Shown here in pieces: positions 3,374 to 25,081 of a stretch of 64,000 nucleotides of DNA. The notes beneath the pieces are model-generated. The model saw only the letters and a list, made by a program, of their open reading frames with translations, searched no databases and had not been told where the DNA came from. Numbering within the stretch: the stretch's first letter is position 1; each line of letters opens with the position of its first letter. Position numbers and translations under genes: made by a program. Origin of the DNA: Pseudooceanicola lipolyticus (lineage in GTDB: Bacteria; Pseudomonadota; Alphaproteobacteria; Rhodobacterales; Rhodobacteraceae); contig NZ_PGTB01000005.1 of assembly GCF_002786325.1 (NCBI RefSeq), forward strand, positions 38,369 to 102,368. The letters are read 5' to 3'.

Positions 3374-3883
3374 CCACCGGGACCCGAAACAGCCGCCAAA
3401 GTGGCCCCGCGGATTTCGGTACGCGGGATCATCGGCCCCTATATAAGCAGACCGCGCCGGCCCCCTTGCTGCGGCGCGGTCGACGCTGCCGGGATGGTAG
3501 CCGCCTTTGACAGGTTTGGCACTCCGGCACTGGTCCAAAAGTTGCCCGGCCGTGGCACGGGTGCCGGATTTTTACCGGTTGCCAGCGGTCCGCGCCGATC
3601 CGCCCATCATGCGCCCACAGGCCGTGTCGATCGCGATCCGACAATGGCCATTGCGGCCCTCGACTGATCGCGCATGGTTAACCATCCGAAAGTGTCCCCT
3701 GGGCGTCCGGCCATCTGGGGCCCGTCGATCCGGCGCATGTTTGGCGCGGCGATCGACAGGCGGAATAGCCTCGTCTTTCCATAACTTTTTTGCCGCCTCT
3801 GGGCGCAAACTTTCATTTTTCATTACCAACGCGTTCGCGTTTAGTACATGCAGAGTGCATCGAGAACTTAGGGAGGAGTCGGT
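3374..3883 (+). other. 510-bp region without a convincing gene
   Basis: It separates the ABC operon from the catabolic island. The open frames here lack ribosome binding sites and recognisable sequence. An imperfect terminator candidate is the 9-bp stem GACCGCGCC (3450-3458)/GGCGCGGTC (3473-3481), without a T tract. The last 110 bp become AT-rich and hold a promoter-like block (3781-3829) shared with three other TRAP genes, plus the site GGGAGGAG (3871-3878). Confidence 0.55.
3781..3829 (+). promoter_or_regulatory. Shared TRAP promoter motif, copy A
   Basis: ATAACTTTT starts at 3781 and TTCATTTTTCATTACCAA occupies 3812-3829, 31 bp downstream start to start. The same two blocks with the same spacing precede the TRAP binding-protein genes at 13319 and 25082, and with a 1-bp shift the one at 20250. 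Here the block lies 63 bp before the ATG at 3884 and upstream of the TRAP large permease. Confidence 0.55.
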
Positions 3884-4006
3884 ATGCAGTCCCTCAAATC
3901 ACCTGTTTCGAGGTGCAAAATAGCGCAGCAAGCAAGATTTCTGCGCGGAATTTCGTTTGGCCTGCGGGTGCGGCGCATCGGTTTGAGGATGGAGCACCCT
4001 AAATGA
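3884..4006 (+). CDS. 40-residue ORF coupled to the TRAP large permease
   Basis: The ATG at 3884 sits 5 nt after a strong Shine-Dalgarno (GGGAGGAG, 3871-3878). The frame encodes MQSLKSPVSRCKIAQQ and ends in a basic tail, with TGA at 4004-4006 overlapping the permease ATG at 4003 (ATGA). It has no membrane segment and no signal peptide. It occupies the place where a TRAP binding protein or small permease would normally stand. It may be a leader peptide that couples translation to the permease, or the scar left when dctP/dctQ were lost while their promoter and ribosome site stayed. I do not recognise the peptide. Confidence 0.4.
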   Translation: MQSLKSPVSRCKIAQQARFLRGISFGLRVRRIGLRMEHPK

Positions 4007-5310
4007 CGGACATTCAGATCGGCTTTGCCGGTATAGCCATTCTTCTGACGCTGATCGCCCTGCGGGTCCCGATCGGGGTCAGCCTGATCGGGGTTTCCTT
4101 TGCCGGAATCTGGGTTCTGGTTGGCGAAAGGGCGGCCTTTGGTTCGCTCGGCATCATCCCCTACAACATGGCGGCGACCTGGCAGCTGAGCTCGGTGCCG
4201 ATGTTTCTGCTGATGGGGTTCTTCAGCTTTCATGCCGGGCTGACCAAGGGCCTGTTCGACGCGGCCAGGGTGTGGCTGTCGGGTTTGCCGGGTGGCCTGG
4301 CCATCGCCTCGGTTTTCGGCGCAGCCGGTTTTGCCGCCGTGACCGGGTCATCGGTGGCCTGTGCGGCCGCGATGGGCCGGATCGCGGTGCCCGAGATGAT
4401 GCGCCGCGAATATGACACCAGCCTGGCAACCGGCACGGTTGCCGCCGCTGGTACCATCGGTGCCCTGATCCCGCCCAGCATTCTGATGATCATGTACGGC
4501 ATCATTGCCGAGGTTCCGATCAACCAGCTTTTCCTTGGCGGGGTCGGCGCCGGCATCATGACGGCCGTGGGCTATGTGGCGGTGATCATGACGCGGGCAA
4601 CGCTCAAGCCCGAACTGGCGCCCCGCATGACCGAGGTGGTGCCGCTTTCCGAGCGTATCGCCGCGCTGAAGGAAATCTGGCCCGTCCTGTTGCTGGTCGT
4701 CTGCGTGTTTGGCGGCCTGTTTGGCGGGGTCTTCACCCCCACCGAGGCAGGTGCGGTCGGTGCCTTCGTGTCGGTTGTCATTGCTGGCGTCAAAGGGCTG
4801 CTGACGCTCAAAAAGTTCCGCGACGCCCTGCTGGAAACCCTGCTGACCTCCGGCGCGCTGTTCATCATCGCAATCGGCGCCAGCATGCTGACGCGCTTTC
4901 TCGCCTTCAGCGGCGCTGGCGACTATCTGAGCGAAATGATCGTTGGGATCGGTGCAAACGAGATCCTGCTCCTGATCGCGATTTCGCTGATCTACCTCGT
5001 CCTGGGCATGTTCCTTGAACCGCTGGGGGCGATGCTTCTGACGCTGCCGATCCTGTTGCCGATCATCGAGAGCACGAATTTCTCATTGGTCTGGTTCGGC
5101 ATCGTGCTGACGAAATTCCTGGAGATCGGGATGATTACGCCGCCGATCGGGCTGAACGTCTTCGTCATCAAGGGCGTGGTTGGAAACTTGGCCTCCACAT
5201 CGACGATCTTTCGCGGTGTTCTTTGGTTCCTATTCGCCGACCTGATCGTGGTCGTGCTGCTGATCATGTTTCCCGAGATCACCCTGTACCTGCCGCGAGT
5301 CCTCGGCTGA
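4003..5310 (+). CDS. dctM: TRAP transporter large permease, DctM type
   Basis: A 435-residue inner-membrane protein with about 12 hydrophobic segments. It shows the usual DctM landmarks: an early PIGVSLIG segment, GAAGFAAVTGSSVACAAAMG and GTIGALIPPSILMIMYG in the first half, and GGVFTPTEAGAVGAF and MITPPIGLNVFVIKG in the second. It carries solute with sodium-ion symport. No binding protein or small permease directly precedes it. The nearest matching pair (dctP 13319, dctQ 14627) lies 10 kb downstream and lacks its own dctM, so the three probably form one transporter. A gap of about 70 bp separates it from the first monooxygenase gene. Confidence 0.92.
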   Translation: MTDIQIGFAGIAILLTLIALRVPIGVSLIGVSFAGIWVLVGERAAFGSLGIIPYNMAATWQLSSVPMFLLMGFFSFHAGLTKGLFDAARVWLSGLPGGLAIASVFGAAGFAAVTGSSVACAAAMGRIAVPEMMRREYDTSLATGTVAAAGTIGALIPPSILMIMYGIIAEVPINQLFLGGVGAGIMTAVGYVAVIMTRATLKPELAPRMTEVVPLSERIAALKEIWPVLLLVVCVFGGLFGGVFTPTEAGAVGAFVSVVIAGVKGLLTLKKFRDALLETLLTSGALFIIAIGASMLTRFLAFSGAGDYLSEMIVGIGANEILLLIAISLIYLVLGMFLEPLGAMLLTLPILLPIIESTNFSLVWFGIVLTKFLEIGMITPPIGLNVFVIKGVVGNLASTSTIFRGVLWFLFADLIVVVLLIMFPEITLYLPRVLG

Positions 5311-5380: not shown

Positions 5381-6973
5381 ATGGTGCAAGACGAATACGA
5401 TGCGGTCGTGGTGGGCGCGGGGTTTGCCGGGATGTATCTGCTGCACCGGCTGCGGCAGATGGGCCTGCGGGCAAAAGCCTTCGAGACCGGCTCGGACGTG
5501 GGCGGCACCTGGTACTGGAACCGTTATCCGGGCGCGCGGGTGGACGTGGAAAGCATGCAATATTCCTATCAATTCGACGAGGAGTTGCAGCAGGACTGGG
5601 AATGGAGCGAGCGCTATTCGCCGCAGCCCGAGATCCTGCGCTATGCGCGGCATGTCGCCGACCGTTTCGACCTGCGCCGCGATATCCAGTTCGAAACCCG
5701 CGTGACAGCGGCCCGGTTCCAGGACGACAGCAAGGATTGGCTGATCACAACCGAGGACGGCACCCAGGTCCGGGCCCGGTATTTCCTGACCGCGGTTGGC
5801 TGCCTGTCGTCCTTCAACAAGCCGGCGATCCCCGGGATCGATGATTTCAAGGGCAACAGCTATTTCACCGCGCAGTGGCCGCATGAACCGGTGGACTTCA
5901 CCGGACAGCGGGTCGCCATGATCGGCACTGGCTCGACAGCGATGCAATCCAGTCCGGAGATTGCCAAGCAGGCGAAGAGCCTGACCCTGTTTCAGCGCAC
6001 GCCCAACTATTCGATCCCATCGCACAACGGCCCCCAGGACCCCGAATACGTGGCCTATGTGAAGGCCAACTATCCCGAGCTGCGCGCCCGTGCGAAACAG
6101 ATCTATGGCGGGGTGCTTGATGATTGGGGCGAAACCGAGGGCAAGCATACGCCCAAGGACGTCATGGAAAAGGAGCTCGAGCGCCGCTGGCGGCGAGGGG
6201 GGCTGACCTTTCTTGGCGGCTATACAGACTCGATGTACGACAAGGACACCAACGAATTTGCGGCCGAGTTCGTGCGCCGGAAGATCCGCGAGATCGTGAA
6301 GGATCCCGAGACCGCCGAACTGTTGTGTCCGACCAACGAGATCGGCGTGAAGCGGATCTGCGTGGATACCGGCTATTTCCAGATTTTCAATCGGCCGAAC
6401 GTCAGCATCATGGAGGTGCGCAACACGCCGATCGAGCGCATTTCCGAAAAGGGGATCGTGCGCGGCGGCGTCGAGCACGAGTTTGACAGCATTGTCTATG
6501 CCACCGGCTTTGATGCGTTCACCGGCAGCTATAACCGCATCGACATCCGTGGCCGCGGCGGTGTGAGGCTGAAAGACCACTGGGAGGCCGGGCCGCGCAA
6601 TTTCCTTGGCATGGCGGTCGCCGGGTTTCCCAACATGTTTACCGTCACCGGGCCGCTCAGCCCGAGCGTCTTCACCAACATGCTCCCGACGATCGAACAG
6701 TCCGTCGAATGGATCACCGACGCGATCGAATACGTTCGGGAACAGGACAAATCCGTCATCGAAGCCACCGAGACCGCAGAAGACTATTGGGTGCGTCACT
6801 GTGACGAGGTGGCGCGGCCAAGCCTGAGATACCATGCCGACTGTTGGTATCTCGGCTCGAACATTCCCGGAAAGCCAAGGGTCTTCATGCCCTATAACGC
6901 CGGACTGCCCGCGTACATCGAGAAGTGCGAACAGGTGGTGGCCAACGATTACGAAGGATTTGCGGTGGCCTGA
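5381..6973 (+). CDS. Baeyer-Villiger-type flavin monooxygenase 1 (atypical fingerprint)
   Basis: A 530-residue FAD/NADPH enzyme expected to insert oxygen next to a ketone carbonyl to give an ester or lactone. The FAD dinucleotide motif is GAGFAG (residues 12-17). GGTWYWNRYPGARVD is the second BVMO signature, and the NADPH Rossmann motif is GTGSTAMQ. The BVMO fingerprint FxGxxxHxxxWP reads FKGNSYFTAQWP at residues 156-167, so the usual His is Phe162. The arginine of the later KRICVD segment is present. A GAGAGGAG-like ribosome site precedes the ATG. A close paralogue of the same length is encoded at 15918. The substrate is unknown; the FAD monooxygenase fold is secure, while Baeyer-Villiger activity is likely but not proven. 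Confidence 0.87.
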   Translation: MVQDEYDAVVVGAGFAGMYLLHRLRQMGLRAKAFETGSDVGGTWYWNRYPGARVDVESMQYSYQFDEELQQDWEWSERYSPQPEILRYARHVADRFDLRRDIQFETRVTAARFQDDSKDWLITTEDGTQVRARYFLTAVGCLSSFNKPAIPGIDDFKGNSYFTAQWPHEPVDFTGQRVAMIGTGSTAMQSSPEIAKQAKSLTLFQRTPNYSIPSHNGPQDPEYVAYVKANYPELRARAKQIYGGVLDDWGETEGKHTPKDVMEKELERRWRRGGLTFLGGYTDSMYDKDTNEFAAEFVRRKIREIVKDPETAELLCPTNEIGVKRICVDTGYFQIFNRPNVSIMEVRNTPIERISEKGIVRGGVEHEFDSIVYATGFDAFTGSYNRIDIRGRGGVRLKDHWEAGPRNFLGMAVAGFPNMFTVTGPLSPSVFTNMLPTIEQSVEWITDAIEYVREQDKSVIEATETAEDYWVRHCDEVARPSLRYHADCWYLGSNIPGKPRVFMPYNAGLPAYIEKCEQVVANDYEGFAVA

Positions 6974-7081
6974 CGGGCGTCGCGACGAATGCAGACACAG
7001 ATGCGCGGGCGGTTTGGGCCGTTCGCGCAAAGGCTGAACTCGGCCTGACGACAGAAACCTCCCAGTGCCTGGAGATTGAAT

Positions 7082-8770
7082 ATGAGCTACGACAGCAAGG
7101 ACAAGGCCGCCCGACGCGCCGCTGAACACACCGAGTATGATGCGATCATCATCGGCGCCGGGATGTCCGGCATGTACCAGCTGTACCGCCTGCGCGAGCT
7201 TGGCTTGAACACGCTTGCGCTGGAGGCCGGCACCGGCGTGGGCGGCACCTGGTATTGGAACAAATACCCCGGCGCGCGCTTCGATTCCGAAAGCTGGTCC
7301 TACGGGTATTCCTTCAACGAAGAGATCCTGAAGGAATGGAGCTGGAGCGAGCATTTTGCCGGCCAGCCGGAGATCCAGCGCTATTGCAACCTGGTGGCCG
7401 ACAAGCTGGACCTGAAAAAGGATATCCGCTTCAACTCGCGGGTCGCTTCTGCGCGATATCTCGAGGAGAGCAACCGATGGCGGGTGACGCTGACGGATGG
7501 TACCGAATTCGTCACCCGCTATCTGATCACCGCCATCGGCCTGCTATCGATACCGACCATGCCCCGGTTCGAAGGGGTGAACGACTTCAAGGGCGTGTGG
7601 TGCCATACCGGCCTGTGGCCGAAAGAGGGCATCGATTACGATGGTAAGCGTGTCGCGGTCATCGGCACCGGCGCCAGCGGCATCCAGGCGATCCAGGAGA
7701 TTGCCAAGACGGCCAAGTCCCTCACCGTTTTCCAGCGGCGCCCCAACTGGTGCACGCCGCTGCATAACGCGCCGATCTCCACCGAGGAAATGGAGGATAT
7801 CCGCGCGCGCTATCCGGAGATTTTCAAACACTGCCAGACCACGGCGGCCTGCTTTATCCATACCCATGATCCGCGAAGCGCCCTGGATGTTTCGCAGGAA
7901 GAGCGGATCGCTTTCTGGGAAAAGCTGTACGCCACACCCGGTTTCGGGATCTGGCAAGGAAACTTCCACGACATTCACACCAATCGCGAGGTGAACCGGC
8001 AATTGTCGGAATTCGTCGCCGACAAGATCCGCGAACGTGTGAAAGCACCGAAAGTCGCCGAGATGCTGATCCCGAAGGATCACGGTTTCGGGACGCGACG
8101 CGTGCCGCAGGAGACAAAATATTACGAGGTCTTCAACCAGGACAATGTTGAACTGATTGCCGTTCTGGAAACGCCGATCGAGCGGATCACCCCAACTGGC
8201 ATTCGCACCAGCGAACGGGAGTTCGAATTCGACGTCATCATCTATGCCACCGGCTTTGACGGGATCACCGGAGCCTTCAACCAGATCGAGTTCGAGGGGC
8301 GCAATGGCCGTACTCTGCGCGAAGAGTGGCAGCACGGTCCGACCACCTTCGTCGGCATGATGGTAAAAGATTTTCCCAACATGTTCATGGTGATGGGGCC
8401 CCACGGTGCATTGGGCAACCAGCCACGGTCCATCGAGCACAATGTCGATTGGATCAGCCGGGTGATCGGCCACATGGAGCAGCAGGGCATCGAACTCGCC
8501 GCGCCGAAACCGGAGGCCGTGGAGGAGTGGCACGACTTTGTCGCGGAAAAGGCCAAGGGCCTGTTGGCGAACGAGGTCGACAGCTGGATGACCGGCGTGA
8601 ACATGAACGTCCAGGGCAAGGAGAAACGGGGGCTGGTGCGCTATAGCGGCACGGCGCCGGAATACCGAGCCCGCTGCGAGGCGGTGATCAGCGGCGGTTA
8701 CGAAGAGCTCGATTTTGACAGGTTCGTCCCCGGTGACGCGGTTTCTGCCGATGCCAAACAGGCCGTGTGA
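7082..8770 (+). CDS. Baeyer-Villiger-type flavin monooxygenase 2 (canonical fingerprint)
   Basis: A 562-residue FAD/NADPH monooxygenase. It has GAGMSG for FAD, GGTWYWNKYPGARFD, the intact fingerprint FKGVWCHTGLWP (residues 169-180, His175) and GTGASGIQ for NADPH. The catalytic-region arginines fall in FGTRRVP. I chose the ATG at 7082 because GGAG (7071-7074) is well spaced; a TTG two codons earlier is less likely. It lies between monooxygenase 1 and an SDR gene on the same strand. Its sequence differs clearly from its neighbour, so the two probably act on different ketones or on successive intermediates. Confidence 0.9.
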   Translation: MSYDSKDKAARRAAEHTEYDAIIIGAGMSGMYQLYRLRELGLNTLALEAGTGVGGTWYWNKYPGARFDSESWSYGYSFNEEILKEWSWSEHFAGQPEIQRYCNLVADKLDLKKDIRFNSRVASARYLEESNRWRVTLTDGTEFVTRYLITAIGLLSIPTMPRFEGVNDFKGVWCHTGLWPKEGIDYDGKRVAVIGTGASGIQAIQEIAKTAKSLTVFQRRPNWCTPLHNAPISTEEMEDIRARYPEIFKHCQTTAACFIHTHDPRSALDVSQEERIAFWEKLYATPGFGIWQGNFHDIHTNREVNRQLSEFVADKIRERVKAPKVAEMLIPKDHGFGTRRVPQETKYYEVFNQDNVELIAVLETPIERITPTGIRTSEREFEFDVIIYATGFDGITGAFNQIEFEGRNGRTLREEWQHGPTTFVGMMVKDFPNMFMVMGPHGALGNQPRSIEHNVDWISRVIGHMEQQGIELAAPKPEAVEEWHDFVAEKAKGLLANEVDSWMTGVNMNVQGKEKRGLVRYSGTAPEYRARCEAVISGGYEELDFDRFVPGDAVSADAKQAV

Positions 8771-8781
8771 GGAGCGCCGCG

Positions 8782-9582
8782 ATGAGACTTGAAAACAAGA
8801 TCGCGATCGTCATCGGCGCCGGCCAGTCGCCGGGGGAAACCATTGGCAACGGCCGCGCCACCTGTCTGGTCTTCGCCCGCGAGGGTGCCAAGGTGCTGTG
8901 CGTCGACCGGGACATCGACAGCGCCGAGCAGACCGCCGAGGCGATCCGGGCCGAGGGCGGAACCGCACAGGCCTTTCGGGCCGATGTGACCATCGAGGCC
9001 GAGCTGGCCGCGATGGCAGCGCATTGCGTGGCCGAATGGGGCCGGATCGACGTATTGCATTACAATGTCGGCATCGGGACCGTCGGGGGCGACGCCAAGC
9101 TGCCCGGCATTACCGAAGAGGCCTTTGACCGGGTCATGGCGGTGAACCTGCGCGGCAATATCATGGCCTGCAAGCACGTGGTGCCGATCATGATCGAGCA
9201 GGGCGGCGGATCGATCATCAACATCTCGTCGCTGGCGGCGATCGAGAAGAATCCGATGGTGACCTACAAGACCAGCAAGGCGGCGATGGTTGCCTTTACC
9301 GAGCAGTTGGCGATCACCAACGCGGCCCATGGCGTGCGCGCCAATGCCATTCTGCCGGGGCTGATGGACACGCCGATGGCCATCGACATGCGGGCGCCCC
9401 TGCTGGGCCAGACCCGTGCCGAGATGGAAGAGGCCCGCAACAAACGGGTGCCGCTGCGCAACCGCATGGGCACCGCCTGGGATGTGGCGCATGCGGCGCT
9501 GTACCTGGCCTCGGATGAATCCGGGTTTGTCAGTGGCATTTCCCTGCGGGTGGACGGCGCCGCCGGCGTGAATGTCGGCTAG
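8782..9582 (+). CDS. Short-chain dehydrogenase/reductase, GNGRA variant, copy 1
   Basis: A 266-residue Rossmann oxidoreductase. The nucleotide-binding loop is unusual: GAGQSPGETIGNGRA replaces the standard TGxxxGIG spacing. The acidic residue after beta-2 (LCVDRD) favours NAD(H). The catalytic set is visible as NISS and YKTSK (YxxxK), and the C-terminus is VDGAAGVNVG. GGAG at 8771-8774 supports the ATG at 8782 over an upstream GTG. It follows monooxygenase 2 by 11 bp. Parts of the gene are almost identical at DNA level to 17558-18358. The likely job is oxidation of an alcohol to the ketone used by the monooxygenases, or of the alcohol freed from the ester. Confidence 0.88.
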   Translation: MRLENKIAIVIGAGQSPGETIGNGRATCLVFAREGAKVLCVDRDIDSAEQTAEAIRAEGGTAQAFRADVTIEAELAAMAAHCVAEWGRIDVLHYNVGIGTVGGDAKLPGITEEAFDRVMAVNLRGNIMACKHVVPIMIEQGGGSIINISSLAAIEKNPMVTYKTSKAAMVAFTEQLAITNAAHGVRANAILPGLMDTPMAIDMRAPLLGQTRAEMEEARNKRVPLRNRMGTAWDVAHAALYLASDESGFVSGISLRVDGAAGVNVG

Positions 9583-9603
9583 GCGCAGCAGAGGCGAAAC
9601 AGG

Positions 9604-10377
9604 ATGAGCAAACGGCAAGGATTGGGCCTGGGCGGGAAGGTGGCTCTGGTCACCGGCGGTGCGACCGGCATCGGTGCGGCCATCGCGCGCAGATTTCACG
9701 CCGAGGGCGCTGTGACCTCCGTCACCGATGTGAATGAGGCAGCGGCGGAGGCCTTGGTCACCGGGCTGAACGAAGAAGCGACCGGCCCTGTCTCCGCCAG
9801 TTCGATGCGGCTTGACGTGACCCGCTCGGCCGACTGGGCGGCGGTTCTCGACCAACTGCGCGCGGTTCATGGCGGGGTCGACATCCTGGTGAACAATGCC
9901 GGCATTCTCGACATGTCCCCGCTGGAAGACATCACCGACGCGTCATGGGACCAGACAATGGCGATAAATGCAAAGGGCCCATTTCTGGGAACGCGGGCGG
10001 TGATGGCAGTGATGCGCGCGCGCGGCGGTGGGGCCATCGTGAACGTGTCCTCGATGGCCGGGATCAGCGGCGGGCGGGCGGCGCATTACGTTTCGTCCAA
10101 GGGGGCGGTGCGGCTTTTGACGAAATCCGCGGCTTTGATCGGGGCGCCCGACAACATCCGGTGCAACTCGGTCCATCCGGGAATGGTCGAAACCGAGATG
10201 GCACGTGCCGCGGTGGCCAGGCCCGGCGCGCGCGAAGAGCGCCTGGCGCGCCTGCCTCTGGGGCGGTTTGCCGATCCTTCCGAAATTGCCAGCGTGGTCG
10301 CTTTTCTCGCCTCTGACGAGGCCTCGTTCATGACCGGCGCCGAGATCTGCGTCGACGGCGGCGCGGTGCTGACATGA
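9604..10377 (+). CDS. Short-chain dehydrogenase/reductase (classical), copy 1
   Basis: A 257-residue classical SDR. The cofactor motif is TGGATGIG, NNAGI follows, and the catalytic Ser/Tyr/Lys lie in NVSSMAG and YVSSKGA. The C-terminus GAEICVDGGAVL is typical. It lies 21 bp after the preceding SDR in the same direction. A paralogue follows the second monooxygenase-SDR pair (18390-19136), so the SDR-SDR order is repeated in both cassettes. The substrate is unknown. Confidence 0.9.
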   Translation: MSKRQGLGLGGKVALVTGGATGIGAAIARRFHAEGAVTSVTDVNEAAAEALVTGLNEEATGPVSASSMRLDVTRSADWAAVLDQLRAVHGGVDILVNNAGILDMSPLEDITDASWDQTMAINAKGPFLGTRAVMAVMRARGGGAIVNVSSMAGISGGRAAHYVSSKGAVRLLTKSAALIGAPDNIRCNSVHPGMVETEMARAAVARPGAREERLARLPLGRFADPSEIASVVAFLASDEASFMTGAEICVDGGAVLT

Positions 10378-13218: not shown

Positions 13219-13267
13219 ATTACTTTTTGAACAGGAAATTCTACATCATTTCATTATGCATAACGAA
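13219..13267 (+). promoter_or_regulatory. Shared TRAP promoter motif, copy B
   Basis: ATTACTTTT starts at 13219 and the 18-mer TTCATTATGCATAACGAA fills 13250-13267, 31 bp downstream start to start. The 18-mer is an almost perfect dyad around TTATGCATAA. It ends about 50 bp before the binding-protein ATG at 13319. The geometry fits a LysR-type recognition site plus activation site. Confidence 0.6.
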
Positions 13268-13318: not shown

Positions 13319-14470
13319 ATGGCACGGTCGACTTTTCTCAAAACTGCATGGGTTCCGCTTGCCTTGGCGGCCTCGCTTGCATCCAGCGCCGCGGTTGCCG
13401 AACCACTGAAAGCCGCGGTTGGCCTTCCGCCGAAAAATTCTACCGTCGTCAGCTATGAGGCTTTCGCGGACTACGTGGCCGAGCGGTCCGACCTGGAGAT
13501 CAAGGTCTATTCGCTGTCTCTGCTCAGCATGAAGGAAACCTCGCCGGGGATCCGCGACGGGCTCGCCGATCTTGGCTTTGTTCTTCCTGTTTACTACCCG
13601 GCCGAATTTGCCGAGAGCAACCTTGTCGCCAACCTGTCGATGCTGTCGACCGCGGGCACGCAGGTGGCCAGCCCGGGCGCCGCGATGACGGGGGCGATGA
13701 CCGAGTACATCTTCTTCAACTGCCCGGAATGCCTGGCCGAGTACAAGGCACAGGGCCAGGTGTTTCTTGGCAGCATGTCAAGTGCCTCTTACGTGCTGCT
13801 GTGCAACCAACCTGTTGCCACCATCGAGGACCTGAAAGGCAAGAAGCTGAGATCCGGTTCGCCGAATTTCTCTCGCTGGGCCGAGAAATTCGGTGCCGTC
13901 GCGGTGTCGATGTCGGGCAATGATCAATACGAGGCGCTTGGCCAGGGCGTGATCGACTGCACCATGGCGGCGGTCAGCGAATTGACCAACAATTCACTCG
14001 CCGATGTCACCAAATACGTCACCCTCAGGGTGCCCGGCGGGGTTTTTGCCGGCGCGGCAACGGCCAATTTCGGCATTCCCAGCTGGCAGGGCCTTACTGA
14101 TGAACAGCGTGCCGTCATCCTGGAGGCGATGTCGCTGATGCAGGCCGACATGACCCTCGGCTATCACAATCTTTCGGTGGCTGACATGGAAGCGGCGCCA
14201 GGCAAGGGTGTGGAGCTTCTTGAACCCTCTCCGGATCTCGTGGCTGAAACCGATGCCTTCGTGATGGATGACGTCAAGATCATCGAACAGCAATTCGCCA
14301 CCGATTACGGCGTTGCCGACACCGGCAGGAAGGTCGCCGAGATCATGGCGCTGGTGGAAAAGTGGAAAGGCCTCACCGCCGATGCGGCCGGTGACAAGCA
14401 GGTCCTCGCCCAGGTCTACTGGGACAACATCTATTCCAAGCTCGACCCGAAGACCTTCGGGATGGAGTGA
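13319..14470 (+). CDS. dctP: TRAP substrate-binding protein 1, DctP type
   Basis: A 383-residue periplasmic receptor with a signal peptide of about 27 residues ending ASSAAVA before EPLKAA. The core GKKLRSGSPNFSRWAEKFGA corresponds to the carboxylate-binding helix region of DctP proteins. Four cysteines (FNCPEC, LLCNQ, IDCTM) are shared with the two paralogues at 20250 and 25082. GGGAGGA at 13308-13314 supports the ATG at 13319 rather than the in-frame TTG at 13301. It is followed by a 13-bp hairpin and then by dctQ, so it should be the receptor of the DctQM permease. The ligand is unknown; a carboxylate fits the family and the surrounding catabolic genes. Confidence 0.92.
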   Translation: MARSTFLKTAWVPLALAASLASSAAVAEPLKAAVGLPPKNSTVVSYEAFADYVAERSDLEIKVYSLSLLSMKETSPGIRDGLADLGFVLPVYYPAEFAESNLVANLSMLSTAGTQVASPGAAMTGAMTEYIFFNCPECLAEYKAQGQVFLGSMSSASYVLLCNQPVATIEDLKGKKLRSGSPNFSRWAEKFGAVAVSMSGNDQYEALGQGVIDCTMAAVSELTNNSLADVTKYVTLRVPGGVFAGAATANFGIPSWQGLTDEQRAVILEAMSLMQADMTLGYHNLSVADMEAAPGKGVELLEPSPDLVAETDAFVMDDVKIIEQQFATDYGVADTGRKVAEIMALVEKWKGLTADAAGDKQVLAQVYWDNIYSKLDPKTFGME

Positions 14471-14590: not shown

Positions 14591-14626
14591 AACCTTGAAC
14601 CCAAATTTCTAGGGTGGAGAACGAAT

Positions 14627-15145
14627 ATGCAAATGATTGGTCGGGTAATGGCGGGCATGATCCGGGTGTTGACCTGGGTGGGTATGCTGGCGGTCATCCT
14701 GATGATGCTTCAGATCACCATCGACGTTGCCGGAAAATATCTGTTCAACGCCCCGATCCCGGCAACGATTTCGATGGTTTCGAATTATTACATGGTGGTG
14801 GTGGCCTTCATTCCGATTGCCTATGTCGAAACCCGGAACGAGCACATCACCGTGGAGGTCGTGACCGAATTCCTGCCGATCAGAACACGCTATCACCTTT
14901 ATTCCTGGACCTATCTGCTTTCCGCCGTTGTCTATGGTCTGCTGACCTACAAGACCTGGATGGAGGCCAACAAATCGTTCCAGGCAGGCTCGTTCATCGT
15001 AGAGCAGGGCTACAAGGTGGTGATCTGGCCGTCCTATTACCTGCTGCCGATCGGCACCGGGCTGATGACGGCGGTGCTGATCTATCGCTGGATCATCTAC
15101 ATCACCGGCGCGAAAAGCGGCCTGGGCGAGGTGAAAACCGTGTAG
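14627..15145 (+). CDS. dctQ: TRAP transporter small permease, DctQ type
   Basis: A 172-residue membrane protein with four hydrophobic segments (around residues 14-34, 46-66, 86-106 and 131-151), the normal DctQ topology. GKYLFNAPIPATISMV and ITVEVVTEFLP match usual DctQ positions. GGAG at 14616-14619 supports the ATG at 14627 over the upstream in-frame alternative. No large permease follows; a CMD-family gene does. The matching dctM is probably the one at 4003. Confidence 0.88.
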   Translation: MQMIGRVMAGMIRVLTWVGMLAVILMMLQITIDVAGKYLFNAPIPATISMVSNYYMVVVAFIPIAYVETRNEHITVEVVTEFLPIRTRYHLYSWTYLLSAVVYGLLTYKTWMEANKSFQAGSFIVEQGYKVVIWPSYYLLPIGTGLMTAVLIYRWIIYITGAKSGLGEVKTV

Positions 15146-15917: not shown

Positions 15918-17510
<1,593 letters not shown>

Positions 17511-17557
17511 GCCCGGCCAACCATTCGCGACAGCGCAGCATTCAGGGAGCATGAGAG

Positions 17558-18358
17558 ATGCGGCTAAAAAACAAGATCGCCATCGTGATCGGCGCGGGCC
17601 AGTCCCCCGGTGAGACGGTCGGAAACGGGCGGGCGACCTGCCTACTGTTCGCACGCGAAGGGGCGCAGGTTCTCTGCGTGGATCAGCACCTGGAACGGGC
17701 GCAGGAGACCGCCGACAAGGTCACGGCCGAGGGCGGCAGCGCCATTGCGATGCGAGCCGATGTCACGTCGGAACGCGACCTCGTCCAGATGGTCGAACGC
17801 TGCATGGAAGAGTTCGGCCGCATCGATATTCTCGACTATAATGTCGGCATCAGCCTGGCCGGTGGCGACGGCAAACTGCCCGAGGTGACCGAAGAGGCCT
17901 TTGACCGGGTGATGGCGGTGAACCTGCGGGGCAATATCATGGCCTGCAAGCACGTGGTGCCGATCATGATCGAGCAGGGCGGCGGATCGATCATCAACAT
18001 TTCGTCGCTGGCGGCGATCGAGAAGAATCCGATGGTGACCTACAAGGCCAGCAAGGCGGCGATGGTTGCCTTTACCGAGCAGTTGGCCATCACCAACGCT
18101 GCCCACGGCGTGCGCGCCAATGCAATTCTGCCCGGTCTGATGGACACGCCGATGGCCGTCGATACCCGTGCCCGCATGTGGGGGCAGAGCCGCGCCGAGG
18201 TCGAGGCGGCCCGGAACAAACGGGTGCCGCTGCGCAACCGCATGGGCACCGGCTGGGATGTGGCCTATGCCGCGCTGTACCTGGCCTCGGATGAATCCGG
18301 GTTTGTCAGCGGAATTTCCCTGCGGGTTGATGGTGCCGCGGGGGTAAATGTCGGCTAG
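17558..18358 (+). CDS. Short-chain dehydrogenase/reductase, GNGRA variant, copy 2
   Basis: A 266-residue SDR, the same length as the copy at 8782. The cofactor loop is again GAGQSPGETVGNGRA, with LCVDQH after beta-2, YKASK as YxxxK, and VDGAAGVNVG at the end. The segment 17888-18160 is almost identical in DNA to 9112-9384. The first 250 bp differ at many synonymous positions, which suggests a conversion tract. AGGAGCATGAGAG precedes the start. It should do the same reaction as its paralogue on the substrate handled by monooxygenase 3. Confidence 0.88.
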   Translation: MRLKNKIAIVIGAGQSPGETVGNGRATCLLFAREGAQVLCVDQHLERAQETADKVTAEGGSAIAMRADVTSERDLVQMVERCMEEFGRIDILDYNVGISLAGGDGKLPEVTEEAFDRVMAVNLRGNIMACKHVVPIMIEQGGGSIINISSLAAIEKNPMVTYKASKAAMVAFTEQLAITNAAHGVRANAILPGLMDTPMAVDTRARMWGQSRAEVEAARNKRVPLRNRMGTGWDVAYAALYLASDESGFVSGISLRVDGAAGVNVG

Positions 18359-18389
18359 AACGCGCCGCGGAACGATGAAAGAGGGCGAA

Positions 18390-19136
18390 ATGAAATTGGC
18401 AGGCAAGGTGGTGTTGGTCACCGGCGGCGGCCGGGGCATTGGCGCGGCCATTGTGCGCCGATTTGCCGCCGAAGGCGCAACGGTGGCCATAGCCGATATT
18501 GACACCCGACCAGCCGAGGCCCTGGCGGCGGACCTGGCGGGGTCTGCGACTGGAGCGGTGTTCGCCGTCTCTCTCGATGTCACCCGTTCGGACAATTGGG
18601 AGCGTGTCATCGCGGATATTGCTGCTGCCCATGGCGGTGTCGACGTGCTGATCAACAATGCCGGGATCTACGAGAACCTGCCCCTGGAGGAGGTCAGCGA
18701 CGACGCCTGGGACCGGATGATGGAGGTCAACGCGAAGGGTCCGTTTCTGGGCGCGCGGGCGGTCATGCCCGTCATGCGCAAGCGCGGGGGCGGGGCCATC
18801 GTCAACGTTTCCTCGATGGCTGGCATCACCGGCAGCCGGGCCTCGCATTACAGTTCTTCCAAGGGTGCGGTGCGATTGCTTACCAAATCCGTCGCGCTTC
18901 TTGGCGCGCCCCTGATCCGCTGCAACTCGGTGCATCCGGGCATGGTGGAGACCGAGATGGCAAAGGCGGCGGTGGCGGCGCCGGGCGCGCGTGAACAACG
19001 CGTTGCGGCCATTCCGCTGGGTCGATTTGCGGACCCCAGCGAAATTGCCAGCGTCGTGGTGTTCCTGGCTTCTGACGAGGCGTCCTTCATCACCGGGGCC
19101 GAAATCCCGGTGGATGGGGGAGGGGCGTTGGCATAG
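18390..19136 (+). CDS. Short-chain dehydrogenase/reductase (classical), copy 2
   Basis: A 248-residue classical SDR with TGGGRGIG, NNAGI, NVSSMAG, YSSSKGA and a closing GAEIPVDGGGALA. I prefer the ATG at 18390 after GAGGG to earlier in-frame starts because the Rossmann strand KVVLVTGG then begins at residue 6, as in the family. It is the paralogue of 9604-10377 and closes the second cassette. The next gene is a LysR regulator on the opposite strand whose stop lies about 30 bp away. Confidence 0.88.
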   Translation: MKLAGKVVLVTGGGRGIGAAIVRRFAAEGATVAIADIDTRPAEALAADLAGSATGAVFAVSLDVTRSDNWERVIADIAAAHGGVDVLINNAGIYENLPLEEVSDDAWDRMMEVNAKGPFLGARAVMPVMRKRGGGAIVNVSSMAGITGSRASHYSSSKGAVRLLTKSVALLGAPLIRCNSVHPGMVETEMAKAAVAAPGAREQRVAAIPLGRFADPSEIASVVVFLASDEASFITGAEIPVDGGGALA

Positions 19137-19166: not shown

Positions 19167-20147
19167 CTATAGCGCGACACCTTCCAGAAGGATTGGCGTG
19201 TCCTTGGGCGGCGCCCAGCGATCGGGCGCGAGCCTGTTGCGGGCCGCCGTCTGGATCGCACGGACCATCACTTCGATTGCCGGTTTGTATTCGGCGTCGT
19301 CCTTGCGGATGATCCCCACCGGGCTGACGCTGTGCGAGGTGTCGATGGCAAGCTCTTTCAACTCGCCCGAAGCGATTTCGCGTGCAAAGACGCCTGCGGG
19401 AACCACGCTGATTGCATTGGTTTCCAGCAGGAAGGCCCGGATGAAGGCCGGCGCCATCGAGACGACCCGGTCGGGGATGTCATCGACCAGCCCGATGGAG
19501 GCGATCAGCCGGGCCACATGGGCATTGTCGCTCGGGCTGTTTTCCGGCAGCACCATGTCGTAATTCTTGAGCAGCGAGATGTCGCAGGGATGCGCGTCGG
19601 CCAGCGGATGTCCGGATCGGACGACGAAAATGAACGGCTCCACATAAAGATGTTCGAAGCTCATGCCGACCATCTCGTCGAGGGCGGGCATGTGGCCGAC
19701 GACAAGGTCGATGGTGTCTTCCTGCAGCTTCTCGACCAGATACCGCAACGGCCCGGTCGAGATCTTGACGATGGCGGTCTGGACTTCACGTTGCACCAGG
19801 TTGACCGCGGCCGGCAAGAGACCGGTCTCGCTGGAGGGCATGGCCCCGACATGGACATGCCATTCAAGCCGGGAATGGGCCGCCATCACCGTATCGACCG
19901 CGCGGTCGAGCTCCATCAGGCAGGCGGCCGCGCGCGGCATGAAAACCTCGCCCTGAATCGTCAGCTTGGCGCCGCCCCGGCCCCGTTCGATCAGGCGGGT
20001 TCCAAGAATACTTTCCAGTTCTTTCAAGGTCTTGGTGACGGCTGGCTGGCTCAGGGACAGCACTTCGGAGGCGGCGCTGATGCCACCGGAGCGGAACACC
20101 GCCATGAAACACCTGAGGTGCCGAAGTTTAAGGCGATTGGCAGCCAT
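19167..20147 (-). CDS. LysR-type transcriptional regulator (PcaQ/GbpR-like)
   Basis: A 326-residue regulator. The winged helix-turn-helix is at residues 5-65 (LKLRHLRCFMAVFRSGG, then AASEVLSLSQPAVTKTLKELE), and an effector-binding domain follows. The HTH wording is close to the PcaQ/GbpR branch, which senses catabolic intermediates. It is divergent from a TRAP binding-protein gene, and the shared 102-bp intergenic region holds the palindrome ATTACC-N9-GGTAAT just before its own start. Four promoters of the island carry related sequences, so this is the best candidate for the island's activator. The effector is unknown. Confidence 0.92.
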   Translation of the reverse strand: MAANRLKLRHLRCFMAVFRSGGISAASEVLSLSQPAVTKTLKELESILGTRLIERGRGGAKLTIQGEVFMPRAAACLMELDRAVDTVMAAHSRLEWHVHVGAMPSSETGLLPAAVNLVQREVQTAIVKISTGPLRYLVEKLQEDTIDLVVGHMPALDEMVGMSFEHLYVEPFIFVVRSGHPLADAHPCDISLLKNYDMVLPENSPSDNAHVARLIASIGLVDDIPDRVVSMAPAFIRAFLLETNAISVVPAGVFAREIASGELKELAIDTSHSVSPVGIIRKDDAEYKPAIEVMVRAIQTAARNRLAPDRWAPPKDTPILLEGVAL

Positions 20148-20150
20148 TAT

Positions 20151-20171
20151 ATTACCTTTTATATAGGTAAT
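20151..20171 (-). promoter_or_regulatory. Palindrome over the LysR gene's ribosome-binding region
   Basis: ATTACC (20151-20156) and GGTAAT (20166-20171) form a dyad with a 9-bp centre. It begins 3 bp upstream of the regulator's ATG (20147 on the minus strand), so occupancy could block its own expression. The same sequence supplies the upstream block of copy D for the divergent TRAP gene. Confidence 0.55.
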
Positions 20172-20200
20172 TCCTAAATATTTTCATGTTACATAAAAAA
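20151..20200 (+). promoter_or_regulatory. Shared TRAP promoter motif, copy D
   Basis: ATTACCTTT starts at 20151 and TTCATGTTACATAAAAAA fills 20183-20200, 32 bp downstream start to start, one more than in the other copies. The match in the right half (CATAAAAA against CATAACGA) is weaker. It lies about 50 bp before the ATG at 20250. Confidence 0.5.
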
Positions 20201-20249: not shown

Positions 20250-21389
20250 ATGGCACTGCGATCACTACTCACGGCTATTTCCATTGCGGCGGTAGGTCTG
20301 CCCGCAACGGTCGTTGTGGCCAAGGATCTGACACTGGCGGTGGGGGTCGGGCCGAAAAACTCGATCACCCACACGATGCAGGGCTTTGCCGATTACATGG
20401 CCGAGCACACCGACATCAATATCAAGGTCTATCCGCTATCCCTGTTGAACCTGAAGGAGACCCCTCCGGGCCTGCGCGACGGTCTGGCTGATATCGGTTT
20501 CGTTCTCACACCCTACTATCCGGCCGAGTTTTCCGAAACCAACCTGGCCGCCAATCTCGGCATGCTTTCCACCGCTGGCGTGCAGGTGGACAGCCCCGGC
20601 GCCGCGATCGCCGGGGCGCTTTCGGAATATGTGTTCAACTGCGAGGAATGCCTCGCCGAATTCAAGGACGAGAACCAAGTCTATCTCGGCAGCGGCATCG
20701 GGTCGACCTACATGATGCTGTGCACCTCGCCGGTGCAGACGATGGAGGACATCAAGGGCAAGAAGTTCCGCTCTGGAGCCGACAACTTTTCGCGTTGGGC
20801 AGAGCATTTCGGCGGGATTGCCGTGTCGCTGCCGGGCAACGATCAGTACGAGGCCATGTCGCAAGGCGTCATCGACTGCACGATGGCATCGGCGACCGAA
20901 CTGACCAACTATTCGCTCTTCGACGTGACCAAGTCGGTCACTGTGGGCATTCCCGGCGGCAACTTTGCCGGGGTGGCGACCAATAACTTCAACAGCGATG
21001 TCTGGAAAAGCCTGACCGACGACGAGCGCAAGGCCGCCTTGATGGCGTCTGCCCGTTCGGCGGCGGACCTGACCTGGCGGTATTACATGGACTCGCAGCG
21101 CGACCTCGAGGCCGCCCCCGGCAAGGGCATCCAGGTGATCGAACCCGCCGCGGATGTTAAGGCCGAGTCCGATGCCTTCGTCATGGCCGATCTCAAGGTG
21201 ATCGAGGATCAGTTTACCACGGGCTACGGCCTCAGCGACGTGGGGCCGAAGATCGCCGAATTCAGCCGGCTTGTCGACAAGTGGAAGACGCTGACCGCCG
21301 AGATCGGCGGCGACCAGGAAGCGCTTGCAAAAGTATACTGGGACGAGGTGTTTTCGAAAGTCGATCCGTCAACTTACGGCATGAACTGA
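20250..21389 (+). CDS. TRAP substrate-binding protein 2, DctP type, orphan
   Basis: A 379-residue periplasmic receptor with a signal peptide ending ATVVVA before KDLTLA. It aligns along its length with the proteins encoded at 13319 and 25082, including GKKFRSGADNFSRWAEHFGG and the four cysteines (FNCEEC, MLCTS, IDCTM). GGGAGGAG precedes the ATG. A strong intrinsic terminator follows and no permease genes are adjacent, so the protein must use permease subunits encoded elsewhere, perhaps the DctQM pair of this island. A different ligand range from its paralogues is a reasonable guess. Confidence 0.92.
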   Translation: MALRSLLTAISIAAVGLPATVVVAKDLTLAVGVGPKNSITHTMQGFADYMAEHTDINIKVYPLSLLNLKETPPGLRDGLADIGFVLTPYYPAEFSETNLAANLGMLSTAGVQVDSPGAAIAGALSEYVFNCEECLAEFKDENQVYLGSGIGSTYMMLCTSPVQTMEDIKGKKFRSGADNFSRWAEHFGGIAVSLPGNDQYEAMSQGVIDCTMASATELTNYSLFDVTKSVTVGIPGGNFAGVATNNFNSDVWKSLTDDERKAALMASARSAADLTWRYYMDSQRDLEAAPGKGIQVIEPAADVKAESDAFVMADLKVIEDQFTTGYGLSDVGPKIAEFSRLVDKWKTLTAEIGGDQEALAKVYWDEVFSKVDPSTYGMN

Positions 21390-21426
21390 TCGGAACGGCG
21401 ACAGAGCTCCGGACAAGGATCCGGCA

Positions 21427-21460
21427 GGCCGACCGCAGCGTGCTGCGGTCGGCCTTTTTT
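21427..21460 (+). terminator. Rho-independent terminator after TRAP receptor 2
   Basis: GGCCGACCGCAG (21427-21438) pairs perfectly with CTGCGGTCGGCC (21443-21454) around a 4-nt loop, followed by six T (21455-21460). It is the clearest terminator in the window and isolates this receptor gene as a single transcription unit. Confidence 0.92.
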
Positions 21461-23157: not shown

Positions 23158-23166
23158 AACGGCTTA

Positions 23167-23195: not shown

Positions 23196-23293
23196 TTCGC
23201 GATCCAGGGCCGGGCGGGATTTGGATCGCGCTGCGAAACCAATCGGGATGTCACCGCTCCGAACACCGCGGCCCGGACGGCGGCACCGCCGGT

Positions 23294-23974
23294 TCAGGGG
23301 GCCGCGAGTTCGCCGACCGATCCATCAATATGCAACTCGGCGCCGGTGACGGCCTGCAGGTCATCGAAAGACAGGGCGCTCAATTTCTCGCGCAGAACGA
23401 AATGCCCGTCTTCGATGTCGATGACGGCGAGCGAGGTGTAGACCCGAGTGACACAGGCCACGCCGGTCAGCGGCATCGAGCAGTGCCGGACAAGTTTCGG
23501 ATCGCCTTTCTTGGTGACGTGATCGGTAACCACCGCCACGCGCTTGGCGCTTTGAACCAGGTCCATCGCCCCACCCACCGCCGGGACCGCGCCCTTGCCG
23601 GTGGACCAGTTGGCTAGGTCGCCATTTTCGGCCACCTGGAACGCACCCAGCACCGCAAGGTCCAGGTGACCGCCGCGCACCATGGCAAAGCTGTTGGCAT
23701 GATCGAAGAAGGCGGCACCGGGGTTCAAAGTGATTGCCTTTTTGCCGGCGTTGATGAGATCCCAGTCCTCTTCACCTGCCGCCGGCGCCCCGCCGAAGCC
23801 CAGCACGCCGTTTTCGGTGTGAAACACGATTTCGCGTCCCGGCACCTGGAATTGCGCAATCTTCTCCGGAAACCCGATACCGAGGTTCACATAGGCACCG
23901 TCTTCGATATCCTGCGCCGCGCGCCAGGCGATCTGGTCGGTCGTCAGTTTGATCTCTTCCAATGCGGTGTTCAT
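23294..23974 (-). CDS. 3-oxoacid CoA-transferase, beta subunit
   Basis: A 226-residue subunit of a family I CoA-transferase, expected to move CoA from succinyl-CoA to a 3-oxo acid such as acetoacetate or 3-oxoadipate. The active-site glutamate lies in HTENGVLGFGGAP, the usual (S/T)ENG motif. Other family features are LVRHCSMPLTG and VTRVYTSLAVIDI. The start at 23974 overlaps the alpha-subunit stop by 4 nt, which rules out the longer frame upstream. The substrate cannot be fixed between Sco- and Pca-type enzymes. Confidence 0.9.
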   Translation of the reverse strand: MNTALEEIKLTTDQIAWRAAQDIEDGAYVNLGIGFPEKIAQFQVPGREIVFHTENGVLGFGGAPAAGEEDWDLINAGKKAITLNPGAAFFDHANSFAMVRGGHLDLAVLGAFQVAENGDLANWSTGKGAVPAVGGAMDLVQSAKRVAVVTDHVTKKGDPKLVRHCSMPLTGVACVTRVYTSLAVIDIEDGHFVLREKLSALSFDDLQAVTGAELHIDGSVGELAAP

Positions 23975-24690
23975 GCCGTGACCTCCGGATAATGTGCCCC
24001 TCGGCGGATCAGAACTTCCTCCTGCTGGGGGTTGGACACTTCGACCACGCCATCGACGAATATGCCCGGAGTGACCACATGTTCGGGGTCGATCCCGCCC
24101 ACCGGTACGATCCGGGTCACCTGCGCGATAGTCCGCTTGGCCGCCATTGCCATCAGCGGGCCGAAATTGCGGGCGGTCATCCGATAGGTCAGGTTGCCCA
24201 TCGGATCGGCGGTTTCGGCCTTGATCAGTGCGAAATCGGCCTTCAGCCAACGCTCTTGCACATAGGTGCGGCCCTCGAATTCCGCCGTTGGCTTGCCTTC
24301 GGCCAATTCGGTGCCATAGGCGGTCGGCGTGTAGAATGCCGGGATGCCGGCGCCCCCCGCGCGGATGCGTTCGGCCAGGGTGCCCTGTGGCACCAGTTCC
24401 AGCTCGATCTTTCCGGCGAGGTAGAGGTCGTGAAACACTTTCGGGTCCGACGAGCGCGGAAAGGTGCAGATCATCTTGGCAACGATGCCATGCTCGATCA
24501 GTGCGGCAATCCCCACATGTCCGGTCCCGGCGTTGTTGTTCACAACCGTCAGGTTGCGCGGTCGGTGGTCGATCAGAGCGTGAATCAGTTCCACCGGCGA
24601 GCCGGCGCCGCCGAAACCGCCAATCATGACGGTGGCGCCATCTGGAATGTCCGCAACAGCTGTTGTGATATCCGGTATCGTCTTGTCCAC
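23971..24690 (-). CDS. 3-oxoacid CoA-transferase, alpha subunit
   Basis: A 239-residue partner of the beta subunit. The N-terminal GATVMIGGFGGAGSPVELI is the coenzyme-binding glycine motif of this family, followed by TVVNNNAGTGHVGI and ELVPQGTLAERIRAGGAGIPAFYTPTAYGT. I chose the GTG at 24690 because GGGAGG lies 8 nt upstream on the minus strand, while the longer frame to 24789 adds residues unlike the family. It is the first gene of the two-gene operon and is divergent from the third TRAP receptor gene. Confidence 0.9.
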   Translation of the reverse strand: MDKTIPDITTAVADIPDGATVMIGGFGGAGSPVELIHALIDHRPRNLTVVNNNAGTGHVGIAALIEHGIVAKMICTFPRSSDPKVFHDLYLAGKIELELVPQGTLAERIRAGGAGIPAFYTPTAYGTELAEGKPTAEFEGRTYVQERWLKADFALIKAETADPMGNLTYRMTARNFGPLMAMAAKRTIAQVTRIVPVGGIDPEHVVTPGIFVDGVVEVSNPQQEEVLIRRGAHYPEVTA

Positions 24691-25081
24691 GTCTCGCGCC
24701 TCCCTCGTGGTTTCCGCTTTGCTTCGGTCAGCCGTGGCGGCAAGGCAAGAAAATTGTTTGGATATTGATATTTGTTCAAATAGTGACATTCACGACGCGC
24801 ATGTTGAACAAGACCGGCCCCGGCGACTCTTGCGGCAGGGGACAGGGTTTCACCGCTGTTGCCGGGCAGTCTGTTTGCCTGCCAAGCTATTGTCTGGGCC
24901 CACAATGCCGCGCCGCCGTCCTGCGTGTCCCGGCTTGTCTGACCGGTTTCCGGGGGCGGACGACGCACCGGACCTGGCTATTACTTTTGGTATAAGTTTT
25001 AAGCCGCGAATTCATTTTTCATAACGAGGCCGGCAAGCAATCATCTCCGACAGGTTCACGCTCGATTTAGGAGGAGATCGA
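24691..25081. other. 391-bp divergent intergenic region
   Basis: It lies between the CoA-transferase operon (minus) and TRAP receptor 3 (plus). The only convincing elements are shared promoter motif copy C (24980-25028) and the ribosome site GGAGGAG before 25082. Short open frames here show no family resemblance. Confidence 0.6.
24980..25028 (+). promoter_or_regulatory. Shared TRAP promoter motif, copy C
   Basis: ATTACTTTT starts at 24980 and TTCATTTTTCATAACGAG fills 25011-25028, exactly 31 bp downstream start to start as in copies A and B. It lies about 55 bp before the ATG at 25082. The surrounding sequence is unrelated between copies, which points to selection on the motif. Confidence 0.6.

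What the first reader, a model, noticed from the sequence alone, without database searches (positions are those of the whole stretch)
3781..25028. Four TRAP promoters share a two-block motif with fixed phasing
AT(T/A)AC(T/C)TTT followed 31 bp later (start to start) by the 18-mer TTCATT(A/T)T(G/T)CATAACGAA-like occurs at 3781/3812, 13219/13250 and 24980/25011, and with 32 bp at 20151/20183. Each copy ends 50-55 bp before a start codon with a strong GGAGG site: the 40-residue ORF plus dctM, and three dctP genes. The DNA around the blocks is otherwise unrelated. A LysR gene divergent from one of them has the palindrome ATTACC-N9-GGTAAT at its own start. A three-turn spacing of two half-conserved blocks is what a LysR tetramer would need. 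I infer one regulon that reunites a TRAP system scattered over 21 kb.
Basis: partly seen in the sequence, partly recalled or inferred. Interest (0 to 1): 0.75.

Follow-up and report, generated by a model that had tools for sequence, protein, structure and literature searches.

The report
PcaQ-type operator repeated at four promoters
Four promoters in a bacterial catabolic gene cluster carry the same two-part DNA site, which matches the DNA found beside genes for the known regulator PcaQ in related bacteria, so the cluster's uptake system and enzymes are probably switched on together by the PcaQ-like regulator encoded in their midst.

Summary
In detail: four two-block sites at 3781, 13219, 20151 and 24980. 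A 46-base pattern with up to 3 mismatches finds these four and one weaker place in the 5.2-Mb genome. The LysR at 19167-20147 is PcaQ-like, below the PcaQ cut-off. A matrix from 32 regions upstream of PcaQ genes in other genomes of the class, made without the window's DNA, ranks the four sites 4, 2, 1 and 3 of 128,000 positions; 0 of 400 column-permuted matrices does as well. In reverse, a model of the window's sites gives 9 hits in 95 loci: all beside pcaQ genes (8 of 62 LysR/pcaQ loci), none in 33 dctP-homologue loci. So the blocks are most likely the distal and proximal parts of a PcaQ-type operator, and the regulon probably includes Baeyer-Villiger monooxygenases and dehydrogenases besides the TRAP genes. 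Against: no binding or transcript data, no close LysR orthologue, no site at dctP homologues elsewhere, and weak genome-wide recovery by the PcaQ model. New member of a known kind.

The parts
3781..3829 (+). Site 1: block 1 ATAACTTTT (3781-3789), block 2 TTCATTTTTCATTACCAA (3812-3829), before the 40-codon ORF and dctM
   Evidence: rank 4 of 128,000 by the PcaQ-operator matrix
13219..13267 (+). Site 2: block 1 ATTACTTTT (13219-13227), block 2 TTCATTATGCATAACGAA (13250-13267), before dctP1
   Evidence: rank 2
20151..20200 (+). Site 3: block 1 ATTACCTTT (20151-20159), block 2 TTCATGTTACATAAAAAA (20183-20200), between lysR and dctP2
   Evidence: rank 1; only hit of PcaQ-operator model R2 in the whole genome, E 5.9
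24980..25028 (+). Site 4: block 1 ATTACTTTT (24980-24988), block 2 TTCATTTTTCATAACGAG (25011-25028), before dctP3
   Evidence: rank 3
19167..20147 (-). LysR-type regulator, PcaQ-like; proposed regulator of the four sites
   Evidence: HTH_1 and LysR_substrate; TIGR02424 272.7 bits, cut-off 303.8
3884..4006 (+). 40-codon ORF after site 1; its stop overlaps the dctM start (ATGA)
   Evidence: no Pfam match at E 1e-5
4003..5310 (+). dctM, TRAP large permease
   Evidence: TIGR00786 302.9 bits over cut-off 268.45; PF06808
5381..13126 (+). Genes behind dctM on the same strand: two Baeyer-Villiger-type monooxygenases, two SDR dehydrogenases, GMC oxidoreductase, LipP1-type hydrolase
   Evidence: the first enzyme is closest in the PDB to phenylacetone and steroid monooxygenases; that they form one operon is inferred
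13319..14470 (+). dctP1, TRAP receptor
   Evidence: TRAP_S1 56.7 bits, over cut-off 50 (scanned from 13301)
14624..15145 (+). dctQ, TRAP small permease
   Evidence: PF04290 72.9 bits
15201..19136 (+). Unassigned 183-aa ORF, third Baeyer-Villiger-type monooxygenase, two SDR dehydrogenases
   Evidence: the 183-aa ORF has no NCBIfam or Pfam match
20250..21389 (+). dctP2, divergent from lysR
   Evidence: PF03480 62 bits; TRAP_S1 45.0 bits, under cut-off 50
21426..21455 (+). Terminator-like hairpin directly after dctP2 (13 pairs, T-rich tail)
   Evidence: 12 terminator-like sites of all strengths in the region, 10.4 in shuffles
25082..26230 (+). dctP3; a 12-pair terminator-like hairpin follows at 26362-26389
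   Evidence: TRAP_S1 54.3 bits; hairpin

Best explanation
The two blocks are the distal (block 1, recognition) and proximal (block 2, activation) halves of an operator of the PcaQ type of LysR regulator. The PcaQ-like LysR at 19167-20147 binds all four sites, probably as a dimer of dimers. It holds block 1, covers its own start region at site 3 (autorepression), and on binding an inducer also contacts block 2 next to the promoter and activates. This co-expresses one TRAP permease pair (DctQ, DctM), three receptors (DctP1-3) and the monooxygenase, dehydrogenase and hydrolase genes behind dctM and dctQ. Shown: the sites, their rarity, their match to conserved sequence upstream of PcaQ genes, and the type of the adjacent LysR. 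Inferred: binding, oligomer state, activation, inducer (unknown, perhaps a metabolite of a ketone or lactone pathway), and operon extents.
For: 1) De novo motif search on 45 regions upstream of PcaQ genes over the family cut-off finds TCATTTTACAT in 41 of 45. The window's DNA was not used; its LysR protein served only to locate the gene starts. That motif alone puts block 2 of sites 1, 3, 2 and 4 at places 1, 2, 7 and 11 in the window. 2) A matrix from 32 of these regions ranks sites 1-4 at 4, 2, 1, 3 of 128,000 positions; 0 of 400 column-permuted matrices reaches this; the best score upstream of 15 other gene starts is -3.7 against 18.8-39.6 at the sites. 3) Covariance model R2 of the same 32, filters off: sites 3, 1, 4 are hits 1-3 and site 2 is hit 5 of 7 (E 0.07 to 6.9). 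4) Reverse test: R1, from the window's four sites, in 95 loci (33 dctP loci, 661 kb; 62 LysR/pcaQ loci, 267 kb) gives 9 hits up to E = 1, all in pcaQ loci: 8 upstream of pcaQ, 1 on its other flank in L144. 5) Spacing agrees: in most of the PcaQ regions the left half-site starts 33 bp before TCAT, in the window 32, 32, 33, 32; both have a T-run behind it. Orientation agrees too, block 2 facing the target gene. 6) The adjacent LysR matches TIGR02424 at 272.7 bits. 7) Site 3 lies in the lysR-dctP2 divergent region, the usual LysR layout. 8) The PcaQ site of S. meliloti, proposed from site-directed mutagenesis, is ATAACCGGGGGATTAT, with the same ATAACC half (PMC5002191, passages).
Against: No binding, transcript or start-site data. 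The PcaQ operators used here are themselves predictions from conservation; only the S. meliloti site rests on experiments, and it was not among them. The LysR is below the curated PcaQ cut-off, at most 37.8% identical to any listed protein outside its genome and 39% inside it, and its place in the tree is unresolved; its DNA-binding part (39-56% identical to PcaQ rows) is hardly set apart from four other LysR rows (39-44%). The right arm of block 1 is not conserved among the four sites. dctP homologues elsewhere lack the site. R1 finds only 8 of 62 LysR/pcaQ loci, some of which are duplicates. Genome-wide, R2 recovers only site 3, at E 5.9. AT-richness helps: with permuted columns site 3 still has a median rank of 11. 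Two other PcaQ-like genes exist in the genome. No sigma-70-type promoter was found at the sites.
Confidence: 0.82

Rival explanations
1. The sites are PcaQ-type operators, but they are bound by one of the two other PcaQ-like proteins of this genome (contigs C22 and C33), or by these together with the local LysR.
For: Both paralogues score about the same against TIGR02424 (276.8 and 274.7 bits). They seem to be divergent from PcaD-like genes (by eye from the DNA, PcaD recalled; not searched).
Against: Their own upstream regions share a different sequence (GGTTAT..TTTTTG..TATTTTTGT, by eye), and R1 gives no hit in their loci L160, L161, L163, L164 up to E = 1. Site 3 lies at the local lysR.
Confidence: 0.1
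2. Block 2 is mainly a core promoter element (-35 or -10 region) and only block 1 is an operator. This overlaps with the best explanation, since LysR proximal sites often overlap the -35 region.
For: Block 2 sits where a promoter could be, and CATAAC resembles a -10 hexamer (by eye). At site 3, TTCATG-N17-TAATCT can be read as a weak promoter (by eye).
Against: Block 2 is the most conserved part of the PcaQ regions, in genomes of several families, and no comparable score is found before 15 other gene starts in the window (both blocks together).
Confidence: 0.2
3. The blocks are leftovers of duplication of a dctP gene with its promoter, not selected sites.
For: The three dctP genes are paralogues; dctP1 and dctP2 are 62 and 54% identical to dctP3.
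Against: Site 1 precedes dctM, not dctP. Flanks and most spacers have diverged while the blocks have not. PcaQ regions elsewhere have similar blocks.
Confidence: 0.04

Closest known systems
PcaQ regulon of Alphaproteobacteria (PcaQ with its divergent operon; S. meliloti pcaMNVWX ABC transporter)
   Same: PcaQ-like regulator; distal half-site (ATAACC in some) with T-run about 33 bp before a TCATTTTACAT-like block; divergent target at site 3; a transporter under control, as in S. meliloti (PMC5002191, passages and a cited title).
   Different: The targets are TRAP genes with three receptors and a Baeyer-Villiger gene set; four sites instead of one or two; the effector part of the protein is diverged (23-32% identity).
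TRAP transporter genes next to pca genes in Roseobacter bacteria (PMC12442348, passages only)
   Same: TRAP genes linked to a PcaQ-led catabolic cluster and induced by an aromatic substrate.
   Different: There one clustered set of TRAP genes; here P, Q and M are split over four units with three P genes, and no aromatic ring-cleavage gene was named among the proteins scanned.
Bipartite operators of LysR-type regulators in general (CatR, OccR in PMC5002191, passages; BenM recalled)
   Same: A conserved distal site plus a less conserved proximal site, activation by a dimer of dimers.
   Different: Sequence and spacing are PcaQ-like; the inverted-repeat arms are poorly kept, and here block 2 is kept at least as well as block 1.

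Membership tests
PcaQ (TIGR02424) | Score over the curated cut-off | tested here: not met
   272.7 bits against 303.8
PcaQ (TIGR02424) | Phylogenetic placement inside the PcaQ clade | tested here: inconclusive
   Polytomy with PcaQ and PcaQ-like rows; that fork is open, support 94/65
PcaQ (TIGR02424) | Divergent pca or pob target gene | tested here: not met
   The divergent gene is dctP2
PcaQ-type operator | Half-site plus T-run about 33 bp before a TCATTTTACAT-like block, facing the target | tested here: met
   weak in the genome-wide search
LysR-type regulator | HTH_1 and LysR substrate-binding domains | tested here: met
   PF00126 65.2 bits, PF03466 79.3 bits
LysR-type regulator | Binds the sites as a dimer of dimers and activates with an inducer | not testable with these tools
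   needs footprinting and expression data
TRAP transporter | Receptor (P), small (Q) and large (M) permease | tested here: met
   PF03480, PF04290, PF06808

The most novel reading that the evidence does not exclude
A PcaQ-derived regulator kept its ancestral DNA code but changed its inducer. Four otherwise unrelated promoters came to carry that code, so one TRAP permease pair with three receptors and a duplicated Baeyer-Villiger pathway answer to a single signal: a clear case of regulatory take-over of a catabolic cluster.
Probability: 0.45. Interest if true: 0.5.

Novelty: new member of a known kind. Interest (0 to 1): 0.38.

Why it matters
It ties an orphan catabolic cluster to a named regulator type and gives ready-made sites and a protein for binding tests. 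It also yields a testable consensus for PcaQ operators in this family of bacteria (half-site plus TCATTTTACAT). Of the 33 dctP-homologue loci examined, 21 have the receptor, small and large permease genes in a row (counted); here they are split over four units that share an operator. Several receptors, or receptors away from the permease genes, also occur in some of the other loci, so the split is uncommon and not unique. It suggests a transporter that takes several related substrates.

Tried and rejected
Close relatives: no same-genus genome was among those drawn. The LysR search gave at most 36% identity in 60 relatives and 36% in the class draw and 37.8% among the 20 plasmid rows listed of 319, so classical footprinting on orthologues was not possible.

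Motif before dctP homologues: upstream sequence of 8 loci read by eye, 62 loci (many overlapping) typed by tblastn with the window's genes, matrix and model scans: none found. Among the 30 rows printed, the only hit outside the window's own and LysR/pcaQ loci was one weak place in L069. The order of genes in the 33 dctP loci, counted: 21 P-Q-M, 3 Q-M-P, 9 other (tandem, distant or lone dctP).

The N9 palindrome as key element: rejected, too common and kept at two sites only. Sigma-70-type promoters: 1 and 4 consensus matches against 2.7 and 3.1 in shuffles, none at the sites. The 40-codon ORF has no Pfam match.

Literature searches: PcaQ, LysR, binding site 14 papers; TRAP transporter, Baeyer-Villiger monooxygenase, LysR 0; LysR operator terms 5; PcaQ, protocatechuate, transport, regulon 12; Baeyer-Villiger monooxygenase, TRAP transporter, gene cluster 2; PcaQ and TRAP 10; three of four LysR/TRAP terms 12. 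Opened by passages only: PMC12285266, PMC5002191, PMC12442348; all others were seen as listings. I make no claim about print beyond these searches.

Rows dropped before counts: 4 of 45 PcaQ upstream regions without the EM motif; 9 of the other 41 were left out of A3, because the four bases at the motif start were not TCAT or TCAA or the upstream stretch was too short. L148 and L149, GC-rich and doubtful, stayed in A3; leaving them out does not change the ranks. The column table used 33 rows. The identity list printed 60 of 67 rows.

Full report
Observation. The four two-block sites are real and at the stated places. Block 1 is ATWACYTTT; block 2 is TTCAT-N4-CAT followed by WA(C/A). Start-to-start distances are 31, 31, 32, 31. 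The half-site ATWAC of block 1 recurs as ATTAC or ATAA(C/A) inside block 2, 41, 41, 42 and 41 bp further on, close to four helical turns. Flanks and spacers are mostly unlike each other, except the spacers of sites 2 and 3 (13 of 22). Leave-one-out scans recover each site behind the training sites and their one-base shifts in 64 kb. In the 5.23-Mb genome the four sites stand nearly alone.

Setting. By sequence families, site 1 precedes a 40-codon ORF whose stop overlaps the dctM start, then dctM, two Baeyer-Villiger-type monooxygenases, two SDR dehydrogenases, a GMC oxidoreductase and a LipP1-type hydrolase, all on the + strand. Site 2 precedes dctP1, dctQ, an unassigned 183-aa ORF, a third monooxygenase and two SDRs. 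Site 3 lies between lysR and dctP2; a 13-pair terminator-like hairpin follows dctP2 at 21426-21455, so the aldehyde dehydrogenase behind it is probably a separate unit (inference). Site 4 precedes dctP3, also followed by a hairpin; on its other side lies a CoA-transferase pair on the minus strand. The first monooxygenase is closest in the PDB to phenylacetone and steroid monooxygenases. The cluster looks like a ketone or lactone degradation pathway (inference).

What the regulator is. The LysR has both LysR domains and its best NCBIfam match is PcaQ, 272.7 bits, below the cut-off of 303.8. No orthologue was found: identities of at most 36% in relatives and in the class and 37.8% among listed plasmid rows. 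The genome holds two further PcaQ-like genes on C22 and C33, 39 and 35% identical to it. Against the PcaQ rows the DNA-binding part keeps 39-56% and the effector part 23-32%; the four other-LysR rows that were printed give 39-44% and 15-22% (60 of 67 rows printed). The protein is thus PcaQ-like as a whole, while its DNA-binding part is only slightly set apart. The tree leaves it in an unresolved fork with PcaQ rows.

The independent test. A matrix from the four window sites, run over the loci L004 to L143 except L072-L081 (2.07 million bases counted over both strands), hit, apart from the window's own copies, mostly the regions just upstream of pcaQ-type genes. I then turned the test round. 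I took 45 upstream regions of PcaQ genes over the family cut-off; the window's LysR protein was used to find their starts, the window's DNA was not used. An EM motif search found TCATTTTACAT in 41 of 45, and this motif alone put block 2 of sites 1, 3, 2 and 4 at ranks 1, 2, 7 and 11 in the window. Aligned on it, most regions show a half-site (TTTCC- or ATAACC-like) at -33, a T-run at -27 to -24, then block 2. A matrix of 32 such regions (A3) ranks the window's sites 4, 2, 1, 3 of 128,000 positions. Of 400 matrices with permuted columns, which keep the AT-richness, none reaches this (sum of log10 ranks 1.38; best permuted 3.31). The permuted median ranks are 414, 75.5, 11 and 267, so composition alone already favours site 3. 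A covariance model of the same 32, unfiltered, gives sites 3, 1 and 4 as its first three hits and site 2 as fifth, with E-values from 0.07 to 6.9. In the whole genome it finds only site 3, at E 5.9. In reverse, R1 in 95 loci gives 9 hits up to E = 1, all in pcaQ loci and none in 33 dctP loci, although the dctP loci make up 661 of 929 kb. The 9 hits fall in 8 of the 62 LysR/pcaQ loci; 54 show none at that level. Of the 9, 8 lie upstream of pcaQ and one on its far flank in L144.

Mechanism. In this class of regulator a distal site is held first, and a weaker proximal site is taken cooperatively when the inducer is bound, which activates the promoter (PMC5002191, passages). Block 1 and block 2 fit these roles in order, spacing and orientation. 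At site 3 block 1 also overlaps the start region of lysR (AAAGGTAAT shortly before its ATG), which would give autorepression; PcaQ autorepression is reported for Agrobacterium (PMC12285266, passages). All of this mechanism is inferred by likeness; nothing here measures binding, and the PcaQ operators compared are themselves predictions from conservation.

What speaks against. The right arm of block 1 is not kept at all four sites. dctP homologues elsewhere (37-50% identity) lack the sites. In none of those loci did this LysR find a relative at E 1e-12, so they are weak counter-evidence; of the 33 loci, 21 have ordinary P-Q-M order. The regulator fails the formal PcaQ cut-off, so I call it PcaQ-like and not PcaQ.

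Verdict. It is a new member of a known kind, of moderate interest.

Noticed in passing
window 7076-10377 and 15918-19136: A monooxygenase-SDR-SDR run appears twice (the first beside a further monooxygenase at 5381); the paired SDR proteins look like close paralogues (by eye from the translations).
   Followed up: no
window 3884-4006: A 40-codon ORF with a strong ribosome site overlaps the dctM start by ATGA, as if for translational coupling; no Pfam match.
   Followed up: partly
L144 1409-1458: A second operator-like site in reverse orientation on the other flank of a pcaQ gene, suggesting a second PcaQ-controlled promoter there.
   Followed up: no
L152, L170, L173, L177, L179: A well-supported subgroup of PcaQ-family genes has a different conserved block (CATTATACAG, in L152 GATTATACAG, in place of TCATTTTACAT), perhaps a regulator group with its own code.
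   Followed up: no
L163 and L164 (contigs C22 and C33 of the window's genome): Two further PcaQ-like genes, apparently divergent from PcaD-like genes (by eye), share an upstream sequence unlike the four sites.
   Followed up: partly
L121, L122, L123 (G161 contig C19): Another genome has several dctP genes within about 55 kb with Baeyer-Villiger-type monooxygenases and a LipP-like hydrolase nearby: a similar cluster, with no hit to this LysR.
   Followed up: no
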